A stretch of DNA of 38,325 nucleotides, from positions 1 to 38,325 of the forward strand of contig CANLEQ010000028.1 in NCBI GenBank assembly GCA_947489705.1, in the 5' to 3' direction. Every line of letters starts with the position of its first letter. Positions within the stretch are counted from its first letter, which is position 1. Below, in pieces: positions 3,763 through 18,650 of this stretch. A program made the translations under genes and the position numbers. The notes under the pieces were generated by a model. That model was not told the origin of the DNA. It ran no database searches and saw only the letters and a list, made by a program, of their open reading frames with translations. The DNA is from an uncultured Paracoccaceae bacterium. Lineage in GTDB: Bacteria > Pseudomonadota > Alphaproteobacteria > Rhodobacterales > Rhodobacteraceae.

Positions 3763-5472
3763 TCAAAACAGGAAATACCGTTGTGCCATGGGCAGAATCT
3801 CGGCCGGCTGGCATGTGAGCAGCTCTCCGTCGGCCCGTACCTCGTAGGTCTCGGGATCGACCTGCATGACCGGCAGCGCGTCGTTGAGCTTCATGTCCCG
3901 CTTGCCGATCCCGCGCGTCCGCCGCACCGCAGCGGTGCGTTTCGCAAGGCCGAGCGTGCCTGCGATGCCGGCCGCCTCGGCCGCCTCGCTGACGAAAAGG
4001 ACCGCCGAGGCTTCGACCGCGCGCCCCATCGCGCCGAACATGGGGCGGGAATAGACGGGCTGCGGGGTCGGGATCGACGCGTTCGGATCGCCCATCTGCG
4101 CGCAGGCGATGGTGCCCCCGAGCAACACCATTTCCGGCTTCACCCCGAAGAAGGCGGGCGACCACAGGACCAGATCCGCGCGCTTGCCCACCTCGATCGA
4201 GCCGATCTCGTGGCTCATCCCATGCGCGATGGCGGGATTGATCGTGTATTTGGCGATGTAGCGGCGCACCCGGGCATTGTCGTTCTCGCCACGTTCCTCG
4301 GACAGGCGCCCGCGCTGCTTGCGCATCTTGTCGGCCGTCTGCCAGGTGCGGATGATGACCTCGCCCGCCCGCCCCATGGCCTGGGAATCGCTCGCGATGA
4401 TCGAGAAGGCGCCCAGATCGTGCAGGATATCCTCTGCGGCGATGGTCTCGCGACGGATGCGGCTCTCGGCGAAGGCGATATCCTCGGGCACGCGCTTGTC
4501 GAGATGGTGACAGACCATGAGCATGTCGAGATGCTCTTCGATCGTGTTGGCCGTGAAGGGCCGCGTCGGGTTTGTCGACGAGGGCAGGACGTTCTCGTCG
4601 CCGCAGATCTTGATGATGTCCGGCGCATGCCCGCCCCCCGCCCCTTCGGTATGGAAGGCGTGGATCGTGCGGCCCGCGATCGCGTCGACCGTCGTCTCGA
4701 CGAAACCCGATTCGTTGAGCGTGTCGGTATGAATCATTACCTGCACGTCCATCTCGTCGGCGACGCTCAGGCAGCAATCGATCGCGGCGGGCGTCGTGCC
4801 CCAGTCCTCGTGCAGCTTGAGCGCGCAGGCCCCGGCCTCCACCATCTCGATCAGCGGGCCGGGCTGGCTCGCATTGCCCTTGCCGGCAAGGCCGATATTC
4901 ATCGGCACGCCGTCAAGGGCCTGCAACATGCGCCCGATATGCCACGCACCCGGCGTGCAGGTGGTCGCGAGAGTGCCATGGGCCGGACCGGTGCCGCCGC
5001 CCAGCATCGTGGTGATGCCGGAATGGAGCGCATCCTCGATGAGCTGCGGACAGATGAAATGGATATGGCTGTCGAACCCGCCGGCCGTCAGGATCCGCCC
5101 CTCCCCCGCGATGATCTCGGTTCCCGGGCCCACGATGATGTCGACGCCTGGCTGCACATCCGGGTTTCCGGCCTTGCCGATCGCGGCGATCCTCCCGTCA
5201 CGCAGACCGACATCGGCCTTGTAGATGCCGGAATGATCGACGATCAGCGCGTTGGTTATGACGGTATCCATCGCGCCGTCCGCGCGCGTCGTCTGCGACT
5301 GGCCCATACCGTCGCGGATGACCTTGCCGCCGCCGAACTTCACTTCCTCGCCATAGACGGTCAGGTCGCGCTCGACCTCGATCAGCAGGTCGGTATCGGC
5401 GAGACGGACGCGATCGCCCGTGGTCGGGCCGTACATCGCGGCGTAATCGGCGCGGGCAATCTTGGTGGACAT
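3763..5472 (-). CDS. ureC: Urease alpha (catalytic) subunit UreC
   Basis: UreC (569 aa) hydrolyses urea to ammonia and carbamate at a dinuclear nickel centre. All active-site residues are visible with the usual spacing: His136 and His138 (DSHIHF), the carbamylated Lys219 ([10 protein letters not shown]), His248, His274 (HAFHTEG), the flap Cys321-His322 (VCHHLD) and Asp362. The start [20 protein letters not shown] at 5472 is the conventional N-terminus; a longer reading from 5565 adds 31 residues with no family counterpart. The SD is weak, which fits a gene that follows other cistrons. It is separated from ureB by a gene for a 102-aa protein. Confidence 0.98.
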
Positions 5473-5568
5473 GGGCAATCTCGGATCCTTGACGATTGCC
5501 TCACTCTTCCCAAGCCCGCCGACGGGAGCAAGGCCCGGGGCCCCGCTCGCGTCGTCATTGCCCAAAAT

Positions 5569-11436: not shown

Positions 11437-12891
11437 TCAGACCCCGCTCGCCGGGATTCCCGTCCGCTCGACGGGCCGGGGTGCGCTGATCGCCTTCCAC
11501 GACGACAGCGCCTCGCTGACAGGCCCTTTCGGCGGGCGCTTGACGAACTGGCCGTGGCCTTCCTGCGAGCGCATCTCGCCATCGTGGACCGCGACATGTC
11601 CGCGGGTGATCGTGAAGCGCGGCAGGCCCTTGACGTGCTGACCCTCGAAGACGTTGTAGTCGATCGCCGATTGCTGGCTCGACGCCGTGATCGTCTTCTC
11701 CTTCGCGGGGTCCCAGACGACGATGTCGGCGTCCGACCCCACCAGAATCGCCCCCTTGCGGGGATAGCAATTGAGGATCTTGGCGATATTGGTCGAGGTC
11801 ACGGCGACGAACTCGTTCGGCGTGAGCCGCCCGGTCGCCACGCCATGCGTCCAGAGCATCGGCATCCGATCCTCGAGCCCGCCGGTCCCGTTCGGGATCT
11901 TGGTGAAATCGCCGAGGCCCGTGCGCTTCTGCTCGGTGCTGAAGGCGCAGTGATCCGTCGCCACGACCGACAGCGATCCGGCCTGGAGCCCGGCCCAGAG
12001 GCTTTCCTGGTGCTTCTTGTTGCGGAAGGGCGGCGACATCACGCGGCGCGCCGCATGGTCCCAGTCGGCGTTGAAATACTCGCTCTCGTCGAGGGTCAGA
12101 TGCTGGATCAGCGGCTCGCCCCAGACGCGCTTGCCCTGCTGGCGCGCGCGGCGGATGGCCTCGTGGCTCTCCTCGCAGGAGGTATGCACGACATAGAGCG
12201 GCACGCCCGCCATGTCGGCGATCATGATGGCGCGGTTGGTGGCCTCGCCCTCGACCTGCGGCGGCCGCGAATAGGCGTGGCCCTCGGGCCCGGTATTGCC
12301 CTCGGCCAGCAGCCGCGCCGACAGATCCGCCACCACGTCGCCGTTCTCGGCATGGACGAGCGCGATGCCCCCGAGCTCGGCCAGCCGCTGGAACGAGGCA
12401 TACATCTCGTCGTCCTGCACCATCAGCGCGCCCTTGTAGGCCATGAAATGCTTGAACGTGTTGATGCCGCGGTCGCGCACGACCGTCTCCATCTCGTCGA
12501 AGACCTGCTCGCCCCACCACGTCACCGCCATGTGGAAGCTGTAGTCGCAATGCGCGCGGGTCGACTTGTTGTCCCACATCTTGAGCGCGTCGAGCAGCCC
12601 CTGCCCCGGCGCGGGCAGCGCGAAATCGACGACCATGGTCGTGCCGCCCGCCAGCGCCGCGCGCGTTCCGCTGTCGAAATCATCCGTGGAATAGGTGCCC
12701 ATGAACGGCATCTCGAGATGCGTATGCGGATCGATCCCGCCCGGCATGACGAAGCACCCCTCGGCGTCGAGCACCTCGTCGCCTTTCAGATCCGGCCCGA
12801 TCTCGACGATCTTCCCCCCGTCGATCAGCACGTCGGCCGCGTAGCTCAGGTCGTGGGTGACCACGATGCCGTTCTTGATGACTTTGGTCAT
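11437..12891 (-). CDS. hydA: Dihydropyrimidinase / D-hydantoinase
   Basis: This 484-aa cytoplasmic zinc amidohydrolase opens dihydrouracil or dihydrothymine to the N-carbamyl beta-amino acid, step two of reductive pyrimidine breakdown. The metal ligands are His56 and His58 (DPHTHLEM), carbamylated Lys153 (HFMAYKG), His180 (VHAENGD), His236 (VVHTS) and Asp313 (ATDHCAF). The C-terminal extension is normal for dihydropyrimidinases. It follows the ureidopropionase-like gene by 58 bases and precedes the transporter genes. An allantoinase role is less likely given preT/preA and the RutR-type regulator nearby. Confidence 0.95.
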   Translation of the reverse strand: MTKVIKNGIVVTHDLSYAADVLIDGGKIVEIGPDLKGDEVLDAEGCFVMPGGIDPHTHLEMPFMGTYSTDDFDSGTRAALAGGTTMVVDFALPAPGQGLLDALKMWDNKSTRAHCDYSFHMAVTWWGEQVFDEMETVVRDRGINTFKHFMAYKGALMVQDDEMYASFQRLAELGGIALVHAENGDVVADLSARLLAEGNTGPEGHAYSRPPQVEGEATNRAIMIADMAGVPLYVVHTSCEESHEAIRRARQQGKRVWGEPLIQHLTLDESEYFNADWDHAARRVMSPPFRNKKHQESLWAGLQAGSLSVVATDHCAFSTEQKRTGLGDFTKIPNGTGGLEDRMPMLWTHGVATGRLTPNEFVAVTSTNIAKILNCYPRKGAILVGSDADIVVWDPAKEKTITASSQQSAIDYNVFEGQHVKGLPRFTITRGHVAVHDGEMRSQEGHGQFVKRPPKGPVSEALSSWKAISAPRPVERTGIPASGV

Positions 12892-12949: not shown

Positions 12950-14209
12950 TCACCCCTCGATCCCCGCCGTTTCGATCACGGCATGCAGCAGGACGTCGGT
13001 GCCGGCCGTGGCCCAGTCCTTGCTGATTTCCTCGGCCTCGTTGTGGCTGAGGCCATCGACGCAGGGGCACATCACCATGGCCGAGGGCGCCACGCGGTTG
13101 ATCCAGCACGCGTCGTGCCCGGCGCCCGAGACGATGTCCATGTGGCTGTAGCCCAGACGCTCCGCCGCGTCGCGCAGCGCGCCGACGCAGCCCTCGTCGA
13201 AGGTCACCGGATCGAAATGTCCCGCCTCCTCGATCTCGATCCCGAGGCCGAGCTCGGCGGCGATCTCGGGCGCGGCCGTCTCGAACGCGGCCTTCATCCC
13301 GTCGAGCTTCGCCAGATCGGGAGAGCGGAAATCGACCGTGAACACCACCTTGCCGGGGATGACGTTGCGCGAATTGGGATAGACGTCGATATGGCCGGCC
13401 GCGCCCACCGCGTCGGGCTGGTTGGACATGGCGATCTCGTGCACCTTTTCGAGCATCCGTGCCATGCCGAGCCCCGCATTGCGGCGCATCGGCATCGGCG
13501 TCGATCCGGTATGCGAATCCTTGCCCGTCAGCGTCACCTGCAACCACCAGAGCCCCTGGCCGTGCGTGACGATGCCGACCTGTTTCTCCTGCGCTTCCAG
13601 GATCGGACCCTGCTCGATATGGAGCTCGAAATAGGCGTGCATCTTGCGCGCGCCCACCTCTTCCTCGCCCTTCCAGCCGATCCGCTCGATCTCGTCGCCG
13701 AACCGCGCGCCCCTGGCATCCGTGCGGTCCTCGGCCCAGGCCTGATCGTGGATGCCGGCGAAGACGCCCGAGGCCAGCATGGCGGGCGCGAACCGCGTCC
13801 CCTCCTCGTTGGTCCAGTTGACGACCACGATCGGATGCTTCGTGCGGATGTCGAGATCGTTCATCGTGCGCACGACCTCGAGCCCCCCGAGCACGCCGAG
13901 CACCCCGTCGTACTTGCCGCCCGTCGGCTGGGTGTCGAGATGGCTTCCGACATAGACCGGAAGGGCCTCGGGATCGGTCCCCTCGCGGCGCGCGAACATG
14001 TTGCCGAGCTGGTCGACGCCCATCGTGCAGCCGGCCGCCTCGCACCAGGTCTGGAACAGCGCGCGCCCCTCGCCATCGGCATCGGTCAGTGTCTGGCGAT
14101 TGTTGCCGCCCGCGACGCCGGGGCCGATCTTCGCCATCTCCATCAGGCTGTCCCACAACCTGTCCCCGTCGATCCGCATGTTCTCGGCGGGGGCGACTTT
14201 CACTGGCAT
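12950..14209 (-). CDS. Zn-dependent M20-family hydrolase, beta-ureidopropionase / N-carbamoyl-amino-acid amidohydrolase type
   Basis: The 419-aa enzyme probably performs step three, cleaving N-carbamyl-beta-alanine to beta-alanine, ammonia and CO2. The bimetal site is seen as His90 (GSHLDTQPTGG), Asp101 (KYDGVLG), Glu135-Glu136 (WTNEEGTRF), His197 (ELHIEQGP) and the SGAGHDACW block near residue 372. The ATG has AGGAGCCCGCC upstream and lies 55 bases from the RutR-type palindrome, so it is the first gene of a probable ureidopropionase-hydA-ABC operon. Allantoate amidohydrolases are close relatives and remain an alternative. The name pydC would fit. Confidence 0.9.
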   Translation of the reverse strand: MPVKVAPAENMRIDGDRLWDSLMEMAKIGPGVAGGNNRQTLTDADGEGRALFQTWCEAAGCTMGVDQLGNMFARREGTDPEALPVYVGSHLDTQPTGGKYDGVLGVLGGLEVVRTMNDLDIRTKHPIVVVNWTNEEGTRFAPAMLASGVFAGIHDQAWAEDRTDARGARFGDEIERIGWKGEEEVGARKMHAYFELHIEQGPILEAQEKQVGIVTHGQGLWWLQVTLTGKDSHTGSTPMPMRRNAGLGMARMLEKVHEIAMSNQPDAVGAAGHIDVYPNSRNVIPGKVVFTVDFRSPDLAKLDGMKAAFETAAPEIAAELGLGIEIEEAGHFDPVTFDEGCVGALRDAAERLGYSHMDIVSGAGHDACWINRVAPSAMVMCPCVDGLSHNEAEEISKDWATAGTDVLLHAVIETAGIEG

Positions 14210-15034: not shown

Positions 15035-16339
15035 TTATTCCGCCGCGACCGCGCCCGGGTTGTTCGGGTGCGTGGTCCAGTTCGCCGGTTCCTTCTGCAC
15101 CGTGAGGCCGGTGCGCGGATCGACGCTGCCCGCTTGCAGCTCCTCCATGGTGATGCAGTCCTCGACCGGGCAGACATCGACGCAGAGGTTGCAGGCCACG
15201 CATTCGTCGTCCTTCACCGTGAAGGTGCGGTCCGGCGACATCGCGATCGCCTGATGCGAGGTATCCTCGCAGGCGGCGAAGCACCGGCCGCACTTGATGC
15301 ACGCCTCCTGGTCGATCCGCGCCTTCGTGACGTAGTTGAGGTTGAGATACTGCCAGTCGGTGACGTTCGGAACCGCGCGGCCGACGACCTCCGAGACGCG
15401 GGAATACCCCTTCTCGTCCATCCACGCCGACAGACCCGCCTGCATCTCCTCGACGATGCGGAACCCGTAGGTCATGGCCGCCGTGCAGACCTGCACGTTG
15501 CCCGCGCCGAGGCTCATGAACTCGGCCGCGTCGCGCCAGGTCGTGATCCCGCCGATCCCCGAGATGGGCAGGCCGGCGGTCTCGGGATCGCGGGCGATCT
15601 CGGCCACCATGTTCATCGCGATGGGCTTGACCGCCGGCCCGCAATAGCCGCCATGCGTGCCCTTTCCGTCGATCGTCGGCTCGGGCGACATCGTGTCGAG
15701 ATTGACGGACGTGATCGAGTTGATCGTGTTGATGAGGCTGACCGCATCCGCGCCGCCGTTCTTCGCGGCCAGCGCGGGCTTGCGGATGTCGGTGATGTTG
15801 GGCGTCAGCTTCACGATCACGGGCCGGTCGTAATACTGCTTGCACCACCGGGTCACCATCTCGATATATTCGGGCACCTGTCCCACGGCCGATCCCATGC
15901 CGCGCTCGGCCATGCCGTGCGGGCAGCCGAAATTGAGCTCGATCCCGTCGGCGCCGGTCTCCATCACGCGCGGCAGGATCGCCTTCCACGCCTCCTCCTC
16001 GCAGGGCACCATGATCGACGCGATCAGCGCGCGGTCGGGCCAGTCGGCCTTCACCCGCGCCATCTCCTCGAGATTGACCTCGAGCGGCCGGTCGGTGATC
16101 AGCTCGATATTGTTGATCCCGAGCACCCGCCGGTCGGCCCCGTGGATCACGCCGTAGCGCGGGCCGTTCACATTCACGACCGGCGGCCCCTCGGCGCCGA
16201 GCGTCTTCCACACCACGCCGCCCCATCCCGCCTCGAAGGCGCGGCGTACGTTGTACTCCTTGTCCGTCGGCGGCGCCGAGGCGAGCCAGAACGGGTTGGG
16301 CGACGTGATGCCCAGGAAATCGGTCGTCAGATCAGCCAT
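15035..16339 (-). CDS. preA: NAD-dependent dihydropyrimidine dehydrogenase, subunit PreA
   Basis: PreA (434 aa) is the FMN and iron-sulfur subunit that reduces uracil or thymine to the 5,6-dihydro base. The FMN barrel (about 1-310) includes ASAPPTDKE, the ELNFGCPHGM block and SGIGGITTWRDAAEFMSLGA. The catalytic loop has a cysteine in the CPHGMAERGMG segment. A C-terminal ferredoxin domain has two cysteine clusters, C347-x2-C-x2-C-x3-C and C380-x2-C-x2-C-x3-C, binding two [4Fe-4S] centres. The SD is GAGGAGG. It is separated from its partner preT by an Fpg/Nei-type gene, which is unusual because the two are normally adjacent. Confidence 0.97.
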   Translation of the reverse strand: MADLTTDFLGITSPNPFWLASAPPTDKEYNVRRAFEAGWGGVVWKTLGAEGPPVVNVNGPRYGVIHGADRRVLGINNIELITDRPLEVNLEEMARVKADWPDRALIASIMVPCEEEAWKAILPRVMETGADGIELNFGCPHGMAERGMGSAVGQVPEYIEMVTRWCKQYYDRPVIVKLTPNITDIRKPALAAKNGGADAVSLINTINSITSVNLDTMSPEPTIDGKGTHGGYCGPAVKPIAMNMVAEIARDPETAGLPISGIGGITTWRDAAEFMSLGAGNVQVCTAAMTYGFRIVEEMQAGLSAWMDEKGYSRVSEVVGRAVPNVTDWQYLNLNYVTKARIDQEACIKCGRCFAACEDTSHQAIAMSPDRTFTVKDDECVACNLCVDVCPVEDCITMEELQAGSVDPRTGLTVQKEPANWTTHPNNPGAVAAE

Positions 16340-16436: not shown

Positions 16437-17219
16437 TCAATGCTGGTGGTCGGGGCAATGATACGCCGATCGCCCGCCAACCTTCTTCATCCTGATCGTC
16501 CCGCCGCAGCGGGGGCAGTCCGTCCCGTCCTCGCGGTTGTGGATCAGCCAGTCGCCCGGCAGCGCGTCGTACTGCGCATCCGTGTCGAGCACACCCCCGA
16601 GCACGTCGCGCATCGCCCCGTGCAGATCCCCGAGCCGGTTGCCACCCAGATCCGTGCCTTTCGCATCGGGTGCTATGCCGGTGCGATAGAGGGTCTCGTC
16701 GGACCAGAGATTGCCGACGCCCGCCATCTTCTTCTGGTCGATCAGCGCCGATTTCACCGCGCCGCGGCTGCTGCCGATCGTATCGGCGAAGGCGTCGCCC
16801 CCGATCTCCATCGCGTCGGGCCCGAGGCCCTGCTGCACCACGAACGCGTCCACGTCGTCGATCGCCCGGACCCAGCCGAACTTGCGCGGACAGCGATAGC
16901 TCAGCCGCCGCTCGCCCTCGAACACGAATGTCAGCCGGGTATGATCGGGCACCGTGTCGTCGCCGTCATGCACCCTGAGCGACCCGCTCATCCCCAGATG
17001 CACCGCGATCCACGGACCCGAGCGCGATCCGGCGAAGATGTATTTTCCGTGCCTCCGCGTCATCGTGAACCGGCCGCCCGCGAAGCCCTGCCGCGCCTTC
17101 GCCGAGGGCAGTTCCACATGCTCGACATCCCGGCCGAGCCGCACGTCCTCGATCGTCCGGTTGAGCGCGCCGTCCTCCACGCGCCGCCGGTTCGCCTCGG
17201 CTTCGGGCAGCTCAGGCAC
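16437..17219 (-). CDS. Fpg/Nei-family DNA glycosylase inserted between preT and preA
   Basis: This 260-aa protein is a bifunctional DNA glycosylase/AP lyase of the Fpg/Nei (H2TH) family. The start is GTG at 17219: read as Met it gives M-P-E-L-P-E, placing the nucleophilic proline at residue 2, which the mechanism requires. Upstream ATG starts would bury that proline. Glu3, Lys59 (RRHGKY), the PRKFGW arginine, the H2TH block GVGNLWSDETLYRTGI and a C-terminal zinc finger are present. The finger is C-x2-C-x16-C-x2-H, with His replacing the usual fourth Cys. It overlaps preT by 8 bases. Whether it prefers purine (Fpg) or pyrimidine (Nei) lesions cannot be told by eye. Confidence 0.9.
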   Translation of the reverse strand: MPELPEAEANRRRVEDGALNRTIEDVRLGRDVEHVELPSAKARQGFAGGRFTMTRRHGKYIFAGSRSGPWIAVHLGMSGSLRVHDGDDTVPDHTRLTFVFEGERRLSYRCPRKFGWVRAIDDVDAFVVQQGLGPDAMEIGGDAFADTIGSSRGAVKSALIDQKKMAGVGNLWSDETLYRTGIAPDAKGTDLGGNRLGDLHGAMRDVLGGVLDTDAQYDALPGDWLIHNREDGTDCPRCGGTIRMKKVGGRSAYHCPDHQH

Positions 17220-18582
17220 GCGCATCCTCGCCGATGACGGCGCCCGCCGGCTCGGACGCGACCGCCATGAGGCGCGCATGGATATCCTCGGCCGCATCGC
17301 GCCCCTCGGCCACCGCCACCACGGTCAGATCGTCGCCCGGCGTACAATCGCCACCCGCCCAGACGCCGTCGAGCGACGTACGCCCGGCCCCTGACACGCA
17401 GATCTTGCGACCGTCGAGCTCGAGCCCCTGAAACGTCAGGACCTGTCCGATCGCCTTGAAGACCTGATCGGCCGGCAGGCGCAGCGTCTCGCCCGTCCCC
17501 CTGAGGCCGGTCCCGTCATCGGCGGTATATTCGAGCTCGATCTCTGCCGCGGCGCCGTTGCCGTGCACCGCGACGGGCTGCGCGTTGAAGATGATGCGCA
17601 CGCCCTTCGATGTCGCAAGGTTCTGCTCGTATTCCGACGCGCCCATCCGGTCCTTGCCGCGGCGATAGGCGATGGTCACGTTCTCCGCCCCGAGCAATTT
17701 CGACTGCACCGCGACGTCGACGGCCGTCATGCCCCCGCCGATCACCACCACGTTGCGCCCGACGGGCAGCTTCGTCAGGTCGTCGGCCTGCCGCAACGCC
17801 GCGATGAAGCCCACCGCGTCCATCACGCCCTCGCGCCCGGCGCCCTCGGCGTCGAGGTCGTTCACCCCGCCGAGGCCGACGCCCAGAAAGACGGCGTCGT
17901 ATTCGGACCGCAGCTCTTCGAGCGTCAGGTTCACGCCCAGCGCCGCTCCCGGCCGCCGCTCGATCCCGCCGATCTGGCAGAGCCATTCGACCTCGCGCGC
18001 GGCGAAATCGCCGGTCGACTTGTAGGCGGCGATGCCGAACTCGTTCAGCCCGCCAAGCTTGTCCTTGGCGTCGTAAAGCACGACGTCGTGTCCCCGTATG
18101 GCGAGCCTGTGCGCGCAGGCAAGGCCCGCGGGCCCGGCGCCGACGACGGCCACGCGCTTTCCGGTGGAGGCGTCGCGGCGGAACGGATGGCCCTGGCGCG
18201 CCATCAGGCTGTCGGTGGCGTGACGCTGCAGGCGGCCGATCTCGACCGGCTTGCCTTCGGCGGCCTCGCGCACGCAGGCCCCCTCGCATAGATCCTCGGT
18301 CGGACAGACCCGCGCGCACATGCCGCCCAGGATATTCTGGTCCATGATCGTCTTGCCCGCCGCTTCCGGCTGGCCGGTCGCGATCTGCCGGATGAAGAGC
18401 GGGATGTCGATCGCGGTAGGGCATGCGGTGACGCAGGGCGCGTCGTAGCAGAAATAGCAGCGATCGGCCGCGACCGAGGCTTCGTGCGGGTCGAGCGGCT
18501 GATGCAGATCGGCGAAGTTCGCGGCGACCTCGTCCTGGCTCAGACGGCCAGCGACGATACCGGGGGTCAGGGGATCGGCCAT
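17212..18582 (-). CDS. preT: NAD-dependent dihydropyrimidine dehydrogenase, subunit PreT
   Basis: PreT (456 aa) is the FAD/NAD subunit that passes electrons from NADH to PreA, resembling the small subunit of glutamate synthase. The N-terminal iron-sulfur region has Cys42, 45, 50 and 54 and Cys89, 93, 99 and 103. The FAD site GAGPAG is at 148-153 and the NAD site GGGMTA at 282-287. The ATG has TTGGAGCTGTC in front. It is the first gene of preT-glycosylase-preA, divergent from the COQ8-like gene across a 186-bp gap with an AT-rich inverted repeat. The final bases overlap the glycosylase start by 8. Confidence 0.96.
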   Translation of the reverse strand: MADPLTPGIVAGRLSQDEVAANFADLHQPLDPHEASVAADRCYFCYDAPCVTACPTAIDIPLFIRQIATGQPEAAGKTIMDQNILGGMCARVCPTEDLCEGACVREAAEGKPVEIGRLQRHATDSLMARQGHPFRRDASTGKRVAVVGAGPAGLACAHRLAIRGHDVVLYDAKDKLGGLNEFGIAAYKSTGDFAAREVEWLCQIGGIERRPGAALGVNLTLEELRSEYDAVFLGVGLGGVNDLDAEGAGREGVMDAVGFIAALRQADDLTKLPVGRNVVVIGGGMTAVDVAVQSKLLGAENVTIAYRRGKDRMGASEYEQNLATSKGVRIIFNAQPVAVHGNGAAAEIELEYTADDGTGLRGTGETLRLPADQVFKAIGQVLTFQGLELDGRKICVSGAGRTSLDGVWAGGDCTPGDDLTVVAVAEGRDAAEDIHARLMAVASEPAGAVIGEDARA

Positions 18583-18621: not shown

Positions 18622-18650
18622 AAAATTTTTTTTATCAAACGGTAAATTTT
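18622..18650. promoter_or_regulatory. AT-rich inverted repeat upstream of preT
   Basis: A 29-bp stretch nearly free of G and C stands out in this GC-rich window. The core is TTTATC-AAAC-GGTAAA (18631-18646, 5 of 6 pairs), flanked by AAAATTT (18622-18628) and its complement AAATTTT (18644-18650). It lies 40-68 bases upstream of the preT start in the divergent promoter region. It does not match the RutR operator, so either a different regulator or the promoter itself is implied. Function is inferred. Confidence 0.45.

What the first reader, a model, noticed from the sequence alone, without database searches (positions are those of the whole stretch)
16437..18582. Fpg/Nei-type DNA glycosylase gene between the two subunits of dihydropyrimidine dehydrogenase
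preT and preA encode partner subunits and are normally adjacent. Here an Fpg/Nei-family glycosylase gene lies between them and overlaps preT by 8 bases. Nei-type glycosylases excise 5,6-dihydrothymine and other ring-saturated pyrimidines from DNA, the very bases PreTA makes as free molecules. A link between repair of reduced or oxidised bases and base salvage is an attractive hypothesis. A random insertion of a repair paralog that kept operon spacing is the dull alternative.
Basis: partly seen in the sequence, partly recalled or inferred. Interest (0 to 1): 0.78.

Follow-up and report, generated by a model that had tools for sequence, protein, structure and literature searches.

The report
Loop-less Fpg glycosylase inside pyrimidine operon
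A DNA-repair gene of an unusual, plant-like type really does sit between the two genes of a pyrimidine-degrading enzyme in many marine bacteria, but that gap holds many unrelated genes in other species and the repair gene also lives in bacteria where the enzyme was not found, so a dedicated link between the two is unproven and not favoured.

Summary
Confirmed. preT (18582-17212), a 260-aa Fpg/Nei-family gene (17219-16437, GTG start, 8-nt overlap) and preA (16339-15035) are collinear. The arrangement is not strain-specific: 35 distinct intact orthologues lie between preT and preA, in 12 named Rhodobacterales genera. The protein is not MutM: the genome has a canonical MutM elsewhere, the window protein misses the curated Fpg and Nei cut-offs, and it lacks the 8-oxoG capping loop (about 30 vs 40 residues). 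Catalytic residues are kept; the best sequence match is Arabidopsis Fpg. It is probably an active glycosylase/AP lyase for Fapy, hydantoin and AP lesions rather than 8-oxoG (inferred).

The proposed tie to dihydropyrimidines is weakened by three controls. In a family sample, 33 of 119 measurable preT-preA pairs hold more than 300 bp of inserted DNA: a methyltransferase in 11, this gene in 3. None of 24 Erythrobacteraceae-type genomes tested that carry the orthologue shows PreA. Glycosylase sequences reject the window's genus as one clade, while the preT tree contains it (weakly), so slot contents seem laterally exchanged. Best reading: a loop-less Fpg riding as co-expressed cargo in a variable slot of the pre operon. 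A functional link is possible but not favoured.

The parts
17212..18582 (-). preT, oxidoreductase subunit of dihydropyrimidine dehydrogenase
   Evidence: Fer4_20 + Pyr_redox_2; 456 aa; no PreT-specific NCBIfam model was among the 25 shown of 64, so the name rests on domains and linkage to preA
16437..17219 (-). loop-less Fpg/Nei-family glycosylase, GTG start, 260 aa
   Evidence: AlphaFold2 pLDDT 96.1, pTM 0.91; top fold matches Arabidopsis Fpg, MutM close behind
17212..17219 (-). 8-nt overlap of preT stop and glycosylase start
   Evidence: same -8 overlap in 16 of 35 slot orthologues, -1 in 7
15035..16339 (-). preA, catalytic subunit of dihydropyrimidine dehydrogenase
   Evidence: NF006183 727.5 bits vs cut-off 335
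18630..18647 (-). conserved operator/promoter-like element TTTTACCNNTTGATAAAA upstream of preT
   Evidence: 1 mismatch; mean 0.01 expected by chance at up to 3 mismatches; at most 2 mismatches in 43 of 46 preT upstream regions (some genomes present twice); only exact match of the 16-nt core in the genome
14379..15014 (+). RutR-like TetR regulator on the other strand
   Evidence: PF08362; RutR model 200 bits, below its 368 cut-off
12950..14209 (-). M20 hydantoinase/carbamoylase-family amidase (beta-ureidopropionase step inferred)
   Evidence: TIGR01879 395.9 vs 204; NF006769 697.3 vs 452
11437..12891 (-). dihydropyrimidinase
   Evidence: TIGR02033 592 vs 393.25

Best explanation
The gene encodes an active, zinc-finger-bearing Fpg paralogue without the 8-oxoG capping loop. 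It most likely uses the family's N-terminal proline to excise Fapy and hydantoin-type lesions and to cleave AP sites by beta,delta-elimination (inferred from residues, fold and what is reported for loop-less plant Fpg). It sits in the gap between preT and preA, which in Rhodobacterales is a recurrently occupied cargo slot: genes placed there are probably expressed from the conserved pre promoter (inferred), and slot contents appear to be swapped between lineages, plausibly by homologous recombination in the conserved preT and preA flanks (inferred). Its repair role does not require PreTA.
For: Catalytic P1, E2, K56, N168, R258 and void-fillers M73, R108 kept in 73 of 73 distinct orthologues; F110 position F in 31, L in 42; capping-loop segment 29-31 aa in 73 of 73 vs 40 aa in 20 of 20 MutM. 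Best PDB profile match Arabidopsis Fpg, E 5.2e-45. Second, canonical MutM in the genome; 26 of 28 orthologue-bearing genomes searched have exactly two PF01149 hits. Purifying selection: dN 0.149, dS 0.712 against the nearest relative. Slot: 33 of 119 pairs exceed 300 bp, 30 of them without this gene intact. No PreA in 24 of 24 Erythrobacteraceae-type carriers searched, against 7 hits among the 10 other handles of that call. Same-genus clade rejected by glycosylase data, p-AU 0.00015, contained in the preT tree. Conserved element upstream of preT with or without the gene.
Against: The slot bias is strong: 35 of 40 distinct Rhodobacterales orthologues, and 8 of 9 orthologues in the 394-genome sample (one frame-broken), more than neutral cargo need show. 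Substrates are inferred only. For the lateral-exchange test, preT support is weak (52), preA does not reject the clade (p-AU 0.107), and I chose the group after seeing the tree, so the p-value is optimistic. Arabidopsis Fpg is on a long branch and its fold lead over MutM is small. Completeness of the 24 genomes without PreA was not told. Recombination breakpoints were not mapped.
Confidence: 0.6

Rival explanations
1. Dedicated coupling: PreTA makes dihydrouracil/dihydrothymine; these or their products damage DNA or enter it, and the co-expressed glycosylase/AP lyase removes the lesions.
For: Conserved position in 12 named genera, mostly with overlapping or close starts; slot bias 35 of 40 and 8 of 9. 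A review states that dihydropyrimidines made by DPD cause DNA-protein crosslinks and replication stress in human cells (PMC7463900, passages). E. coli endonuclease VIII, of the same superfamily, is assayed on DHU substrates (PMC5448014, passages).
Against: 24 of 24 tested Erythrobacteraceae-type carriers and one Rhodobacterales carrier (G002, seen again as L059) show no PreA. 82 of 119 preT-preA pairs are within 150 bp, without room for it, and 10 of 394 family genomes, the window's included, have a match at E 1e-35. Other occupants have no evident repair role. Protein is not Nei-like.
Confidence: 0.16
2. Co-regulation for a shared condition: the operon is on when cells scavenge nucleobases or suffer flavin/Fe-S derived oxidative stress, and a repair enzyme for oxidised bases is useful then, without acting on PreTA products.
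For: Single conserved element upstream of preT; overlap with preT. No promoter-like site was found inside the operon, but that sigma-70 scan found none upstream of preT either, so it says little.
Against: Same variety of unrelated occupants and same independence from PreTA as above; no expression data.
Confidence: 0.15
3. Ordinary MutM relocated by chance, with no change of function.
For: Fpg void-filling and catalytic residues kept. Plant loop-less Fpg was first reported to excise 8-oxoG and to complement an E. coli fpg reporter (PMC10573277, passages).
Against: Separate clade from MutM (100/98 for the 16 sampled orthologues, 100/99 for the loop-less side); Fpg models score 155 and 151 bits vs cut-offs 212 and 203; capping loop short in 73 of 73; true MutM present.
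Confidence: 0.04

Closest known systems
Arabidopsis Fpg / MMH-1 (plant and fungal Fpg; PDB 3twk, 3twl, 3twm)
   Same: Best profile match and top fold match; capping loop missing at the same place; [LF]PxxW[LI]xHxRE-type linker; proline/glutamate/lysine/arginine set
   Different: Plant/fungal clade has a zincless finger (PMC3188539, passages); the window protein keeps three Cys and one His; about 28% identity; long branch in the tree
Bacterial Fpg/MutM (own-genome copy; E. coli 1k82)
   Same: Fold, catalytic residues, M73/R108/F110 void-fillers
   Different: 32% identity to own MutM; no 8-oxoG capping loop; His as fourth zinc ligand; below curated Fpg cut-offs
Endonuclease VIII (Nei)
   Different: 43 bits vs cut-off 252; carries the Fpg-type M and R instead of Nei's void-filling tripeptide
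PreTA dihydropyrimidine dehydrogenase operon
   Same: PreT, PreA, dihydropyrimidinase, M20 amidase and RutR-like regulator in one neighbourhood
   Different: Foreign gene between the two subunit genes

Membership tests
Bacterial Fpg/MutM (8-oxoG type) | Score over curated equivalog cut-off (PRK01103, TIGR00577) | tested here: not met
   155.4 vs 212 and 151.3 vs 203.3 bits; own MutM 351.8 and 276.4
Bacterial Fpg/MutM (8-oxoG type) | Catalytic P1, E2, K56, R258 | tested here: met
   kept in 73 of 73 distinct orthologues incl. the window's
Bacterial Fpg/MutM (8-oxoG type) | Long alphaF-beta9/10 capping loop over 8-oxoG | tested here: not met
   29-31 aa segment in 73 of 73 vs 40 aa in 20 of 20 MutM
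Bacterial Fpg/MutM (8-oxoG type) | Four-cysteine zinc finger | tested here: not met
   window CPRC...CPDH (C3H); text pattern gave C3H in 66 of 73, C4 in 1, no match in 6; the same pattern missed 17 of 20 MutM, whose spacing can be wider, so it is only a rough count
Endonuclease VIII (Nei) | Curated cut-off and Nei void-filling triad | tested here: not met
   43 bits vs 252; M73 and R108 of Fpg present instead
Plant/fungal-type loop-less Fpg | Missing capping loop and grouping with Arabidopsis Fpg apart from MutM | tested here: inconclusive
   loop absent and joined at 100/99, but with a single plant row on a long branch and the tool's warning
Plant/fungal-type loop-less Fpg | Zincless finger | tested here: not met
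   three Cys and one His positions kept
Plant/fungal-type loop-less Fpg | Fapy/Gh/Sp/AP activity with little 8-oxoG activity | not testable with these tools
   needs enzyme assay
PreTA dihydropyrimidine dehydrogenase | PreA equivalog match | tested here: met
   NF006183 727.5 vs 335 bits
Actinobacterial Fpg2 (BaFpg2) | Grouping with that clade | not tested
   no actinobacterial Fpg2 row was placed in the trees

The most novel reading that the evidence does not exclude
The glycosylase is a specialised guard against DNA damage caused by dihydropyrimidines or their breakdown products, built into the same transcript as the enzyme that makes them, and later reused for other lesions after transfer to bacteria without PreTA.
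Probability: 0.12. Interest if true: 0.8.

Novelty: new variant of a known kind. Interest (0 to 1): 0.46.

Why it matters
It points to a bacterial clade of Fpg enzymes that lack the 8-oxoG loop but keep the zinc-finger ligands; I found no description of it in the held papers. It is a natural comparison for why plant and fungal Fpg are poor on 8-oxoG. It also shows that the gap between two subunit genes of one enzyme can serve as an exchangeable gene slot, a caution against reading function from conserved neighbours. If the guard hypothesis were true, it would give a bacterial model for dihydropyrimidine genotoxicity, which the review seen here discusses for human cells.

Tried and rejected
Rejected: strain-unique arrangement. 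Rejected: ordinary MutM. Rejected: Nei. Plasmid carriage: no match at E 1e-30 in 72,556 plasmid records. Led nowhere: family models and fold search for the companion 'DUF170' protein; promoter/terminator scan; a clustering step gave mixed clusters because of spurious frames and was replaced by searches with reference proteins. The junction values first computed for L040 and L090 were artefacts and were recomputed. Class- and phylum-wide profile searches (7 of 385 and 4 of 349 genomes at E 1e-40, the window's own counted in each) gave a few distant relatives, some with the loop. Papers: the original plant Fpg papers and Basbous 2020 are not held. No held paper has Rhodobacteraceae + DNA glycosylase + dihydropyrimidine dehydrogenase + operon, or Roseobacter + dihydropyrimidine dehydrogenase + uracil + gene cluster. 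One search (at least 3 of preT, preA, dihydropyrimidine dehydrogenase, glycosylase) showed 12 of 187 papers, none on this arrangement by title.

Full report
Observation. On the minus strand the window reads preT (18582-17212), a 260-residue Fpg/Nei-family gene (17219-16437) and preA (16339-15035). Pfam finds the Fapy N-terminal domain, H2TH and zinc finger above cut-off. Downstream lie a RutR-like regulator (other strand), an M20 amidase and a dihydropyrimidinase, so this is a reductive pyrimidine-degradation locus.

It is not MutM. The genome has one other Fpg-family gene, on contig C1 (the H2TH search finds the same two). It passes the curated Fpg cut-offs and lies beside a ubiE-family frame on the other strand. 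The window protein scores 155 and 151 bits against Fpg cut-offs of 212 and 203, and 43 against 252 for Nei. Among 28 orthologue-bearing genomes searched, 26 have exactly two PF01149 hits; one metagenome bin has one, and Litoreibacter has three because its copy is frame-broken into two pieces.

What loop-less Fpg does. A review reports that the plant enzyme has excellent activity on Fapy bases, guanidinohydantoin and spiroiminodihydantoin and only minor activity on 8-oxoG, attributed to the short loop; it also notes an earlier report of 8-oxoG excision and complementation of an E. coli fpg reporter (PMC10573277, passages). A second paper adds abasic sites (PMC6264785, passages). The same range is inferred, not shown, for the window protein. 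A family study counted two Fpg/Nei clades in proteobacteria and said the loop's role was unknown outside one bacterial Fpg clade (PMC3188539, passages).

Conservation of the arrangement. A scan of one genome for each of 84,980 species, limited to two peptide patterns and so a lower bound, gave 70 loci, 69 of them orthologues at 51-66% identity. Of 40 distinct intact Rhodobacterales sequences in the tree, 35 lie between preT and preA and 5 elsewhere. Named genera in the slot are Palleronia, Wenxinia, Loktanella, Marivita, Jannaschia, Roseivivax, Roseovarius, Sulfitobacter, Roseobacter (uncultured), Histidinibacterium, Kandeliimicrobium and Pseudoroseicyclus; Litoreibacter has the frame-broken copy there. 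The start overlaps the preT stop by 8 nt in 16 of 35 and by 1 nt in 7; 7 lie within 31 nt after it and 5 have another gene between. The gene is rare: 10 of 394 family genomes, the window's included, have a match at E 1e-35. Nine of the ten are close orthologues; 8 of these 9 are in the slot (one frame-broken) and one is elsewhere; the tenth is a distant relative outside the slot.

Controls against a dedicated link. First, in 248 family genomes preA and preT were each found in 206; 119 pairs could be measured from the printed rows: 82 within 150 bp, 4 at 150-300 bp, 33 above 300 bp. The 33 hold this glycosylase in 3 (one frame-broken), a methyltransferase in 11 (three with further genes), a glycosyltransferase in 3, a VTT-domain protein in 3, an unnamed family of about 170 residues in 4 (one of them next to a glycosylase remnant), a GFA protein alone in 1, a glyoxalase-fold protein alone in 1 and unassigned short frames in 7. 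Second, 33 orthologues form one Erythrobacteraceae-type clade (support 88, not starred) among the Rhodobacterales ones; by my rough gene of these 33 loci have a zapA and/or 5-formyltetrahydrofolate cyclo-ligase gene upstream. Twenty-four of the 33 genomes were searched for PreA: none has it at E 1e-30, while 7 of the 10 other handles in the same call do (three of those ten are repeats of genomes listed under another handle). Third, the glycosylase data reject a single clade for six slot sequences of the window's genus, which by identical proteins includes Palleronia species (p-AU 0.00015); the preT tree contains that clade (weak support 52) and preA does not reject it (p 0.107). I chose that group after seeing the first tree, so the p-value is optimistic. 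Slot contents have probably moved between lineages under conserved flanks.

Expression. Upstream of preT lies a strongly conserved element, TTTTACCNNTTGATAAAA, with at most two mismatches in 43 of 46 upstream regions (some genomes counted twice), with and without the glycosylase; two Jannaschia loci lack it. In the window's genome its 16-nt core has one exact match, here. The inserted gene probably shares this promoter (inferred); a simple promoter scan found nothing anywhere in the operon, including here, and is uninformative.

Selection. Window versus its nearest relative gives dN 0.149, dS 0.712 for the glycosylase, against 0.064/0.488 for preT and 0.025/0.408 for preA: it is constrained, so probably functional, but less than its neighbours.

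Verdict. The enzyme is an uncommon loop-less Fpg. The specific idea of repair coupled to base reduction is not excluded: the slot bias is real, and dihydropyrimidines are reported as genotoxic in human cells (PMC7463900, passages). The distribution and the slot control nevertheless favour co-expressed cargo.

Noticed in passing
L040, L051, L078, L084, L088, L156, L160, L170, L171 (preT-preA gap): A protein family of about 170-180 residues without Pfam or NCBIfam match shares the preT-preA gap, in five intact loci together with the glycosylase; predicted all-helical, no PDB fold match at E 0.001. Not found in the window's genome, a search without positive control.
   Followed up: partly
window 18630-18647 (-): Conserved inverted-repeat-like element upstream of preT across Rhodobacterales; exact core found once in the genome. 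The regulator that binds it is unknown; the RutR-like TetR nearby is a candidate.
   Followed up: partly
L151-L155, L157-L159, L163, L164, L166: A class I SAM methyltransferase of about 280 residues is the commonest occupant of enlarged preT-preA gaps (11 of 33).
   Followed up: no
L102 (Litoreibacter roseus) and L160 (G103): Apparently decaying copies of the glycosylase in the slot: one frame-broken near residue 29 (assembly error not excluded), one reduced to a C-terminal remnant.
   Followed up: no
window 3763-5565 (-): Urease alpha subunit gene in the same region as the pyrimidine-degradation genes.
   Followed up: no
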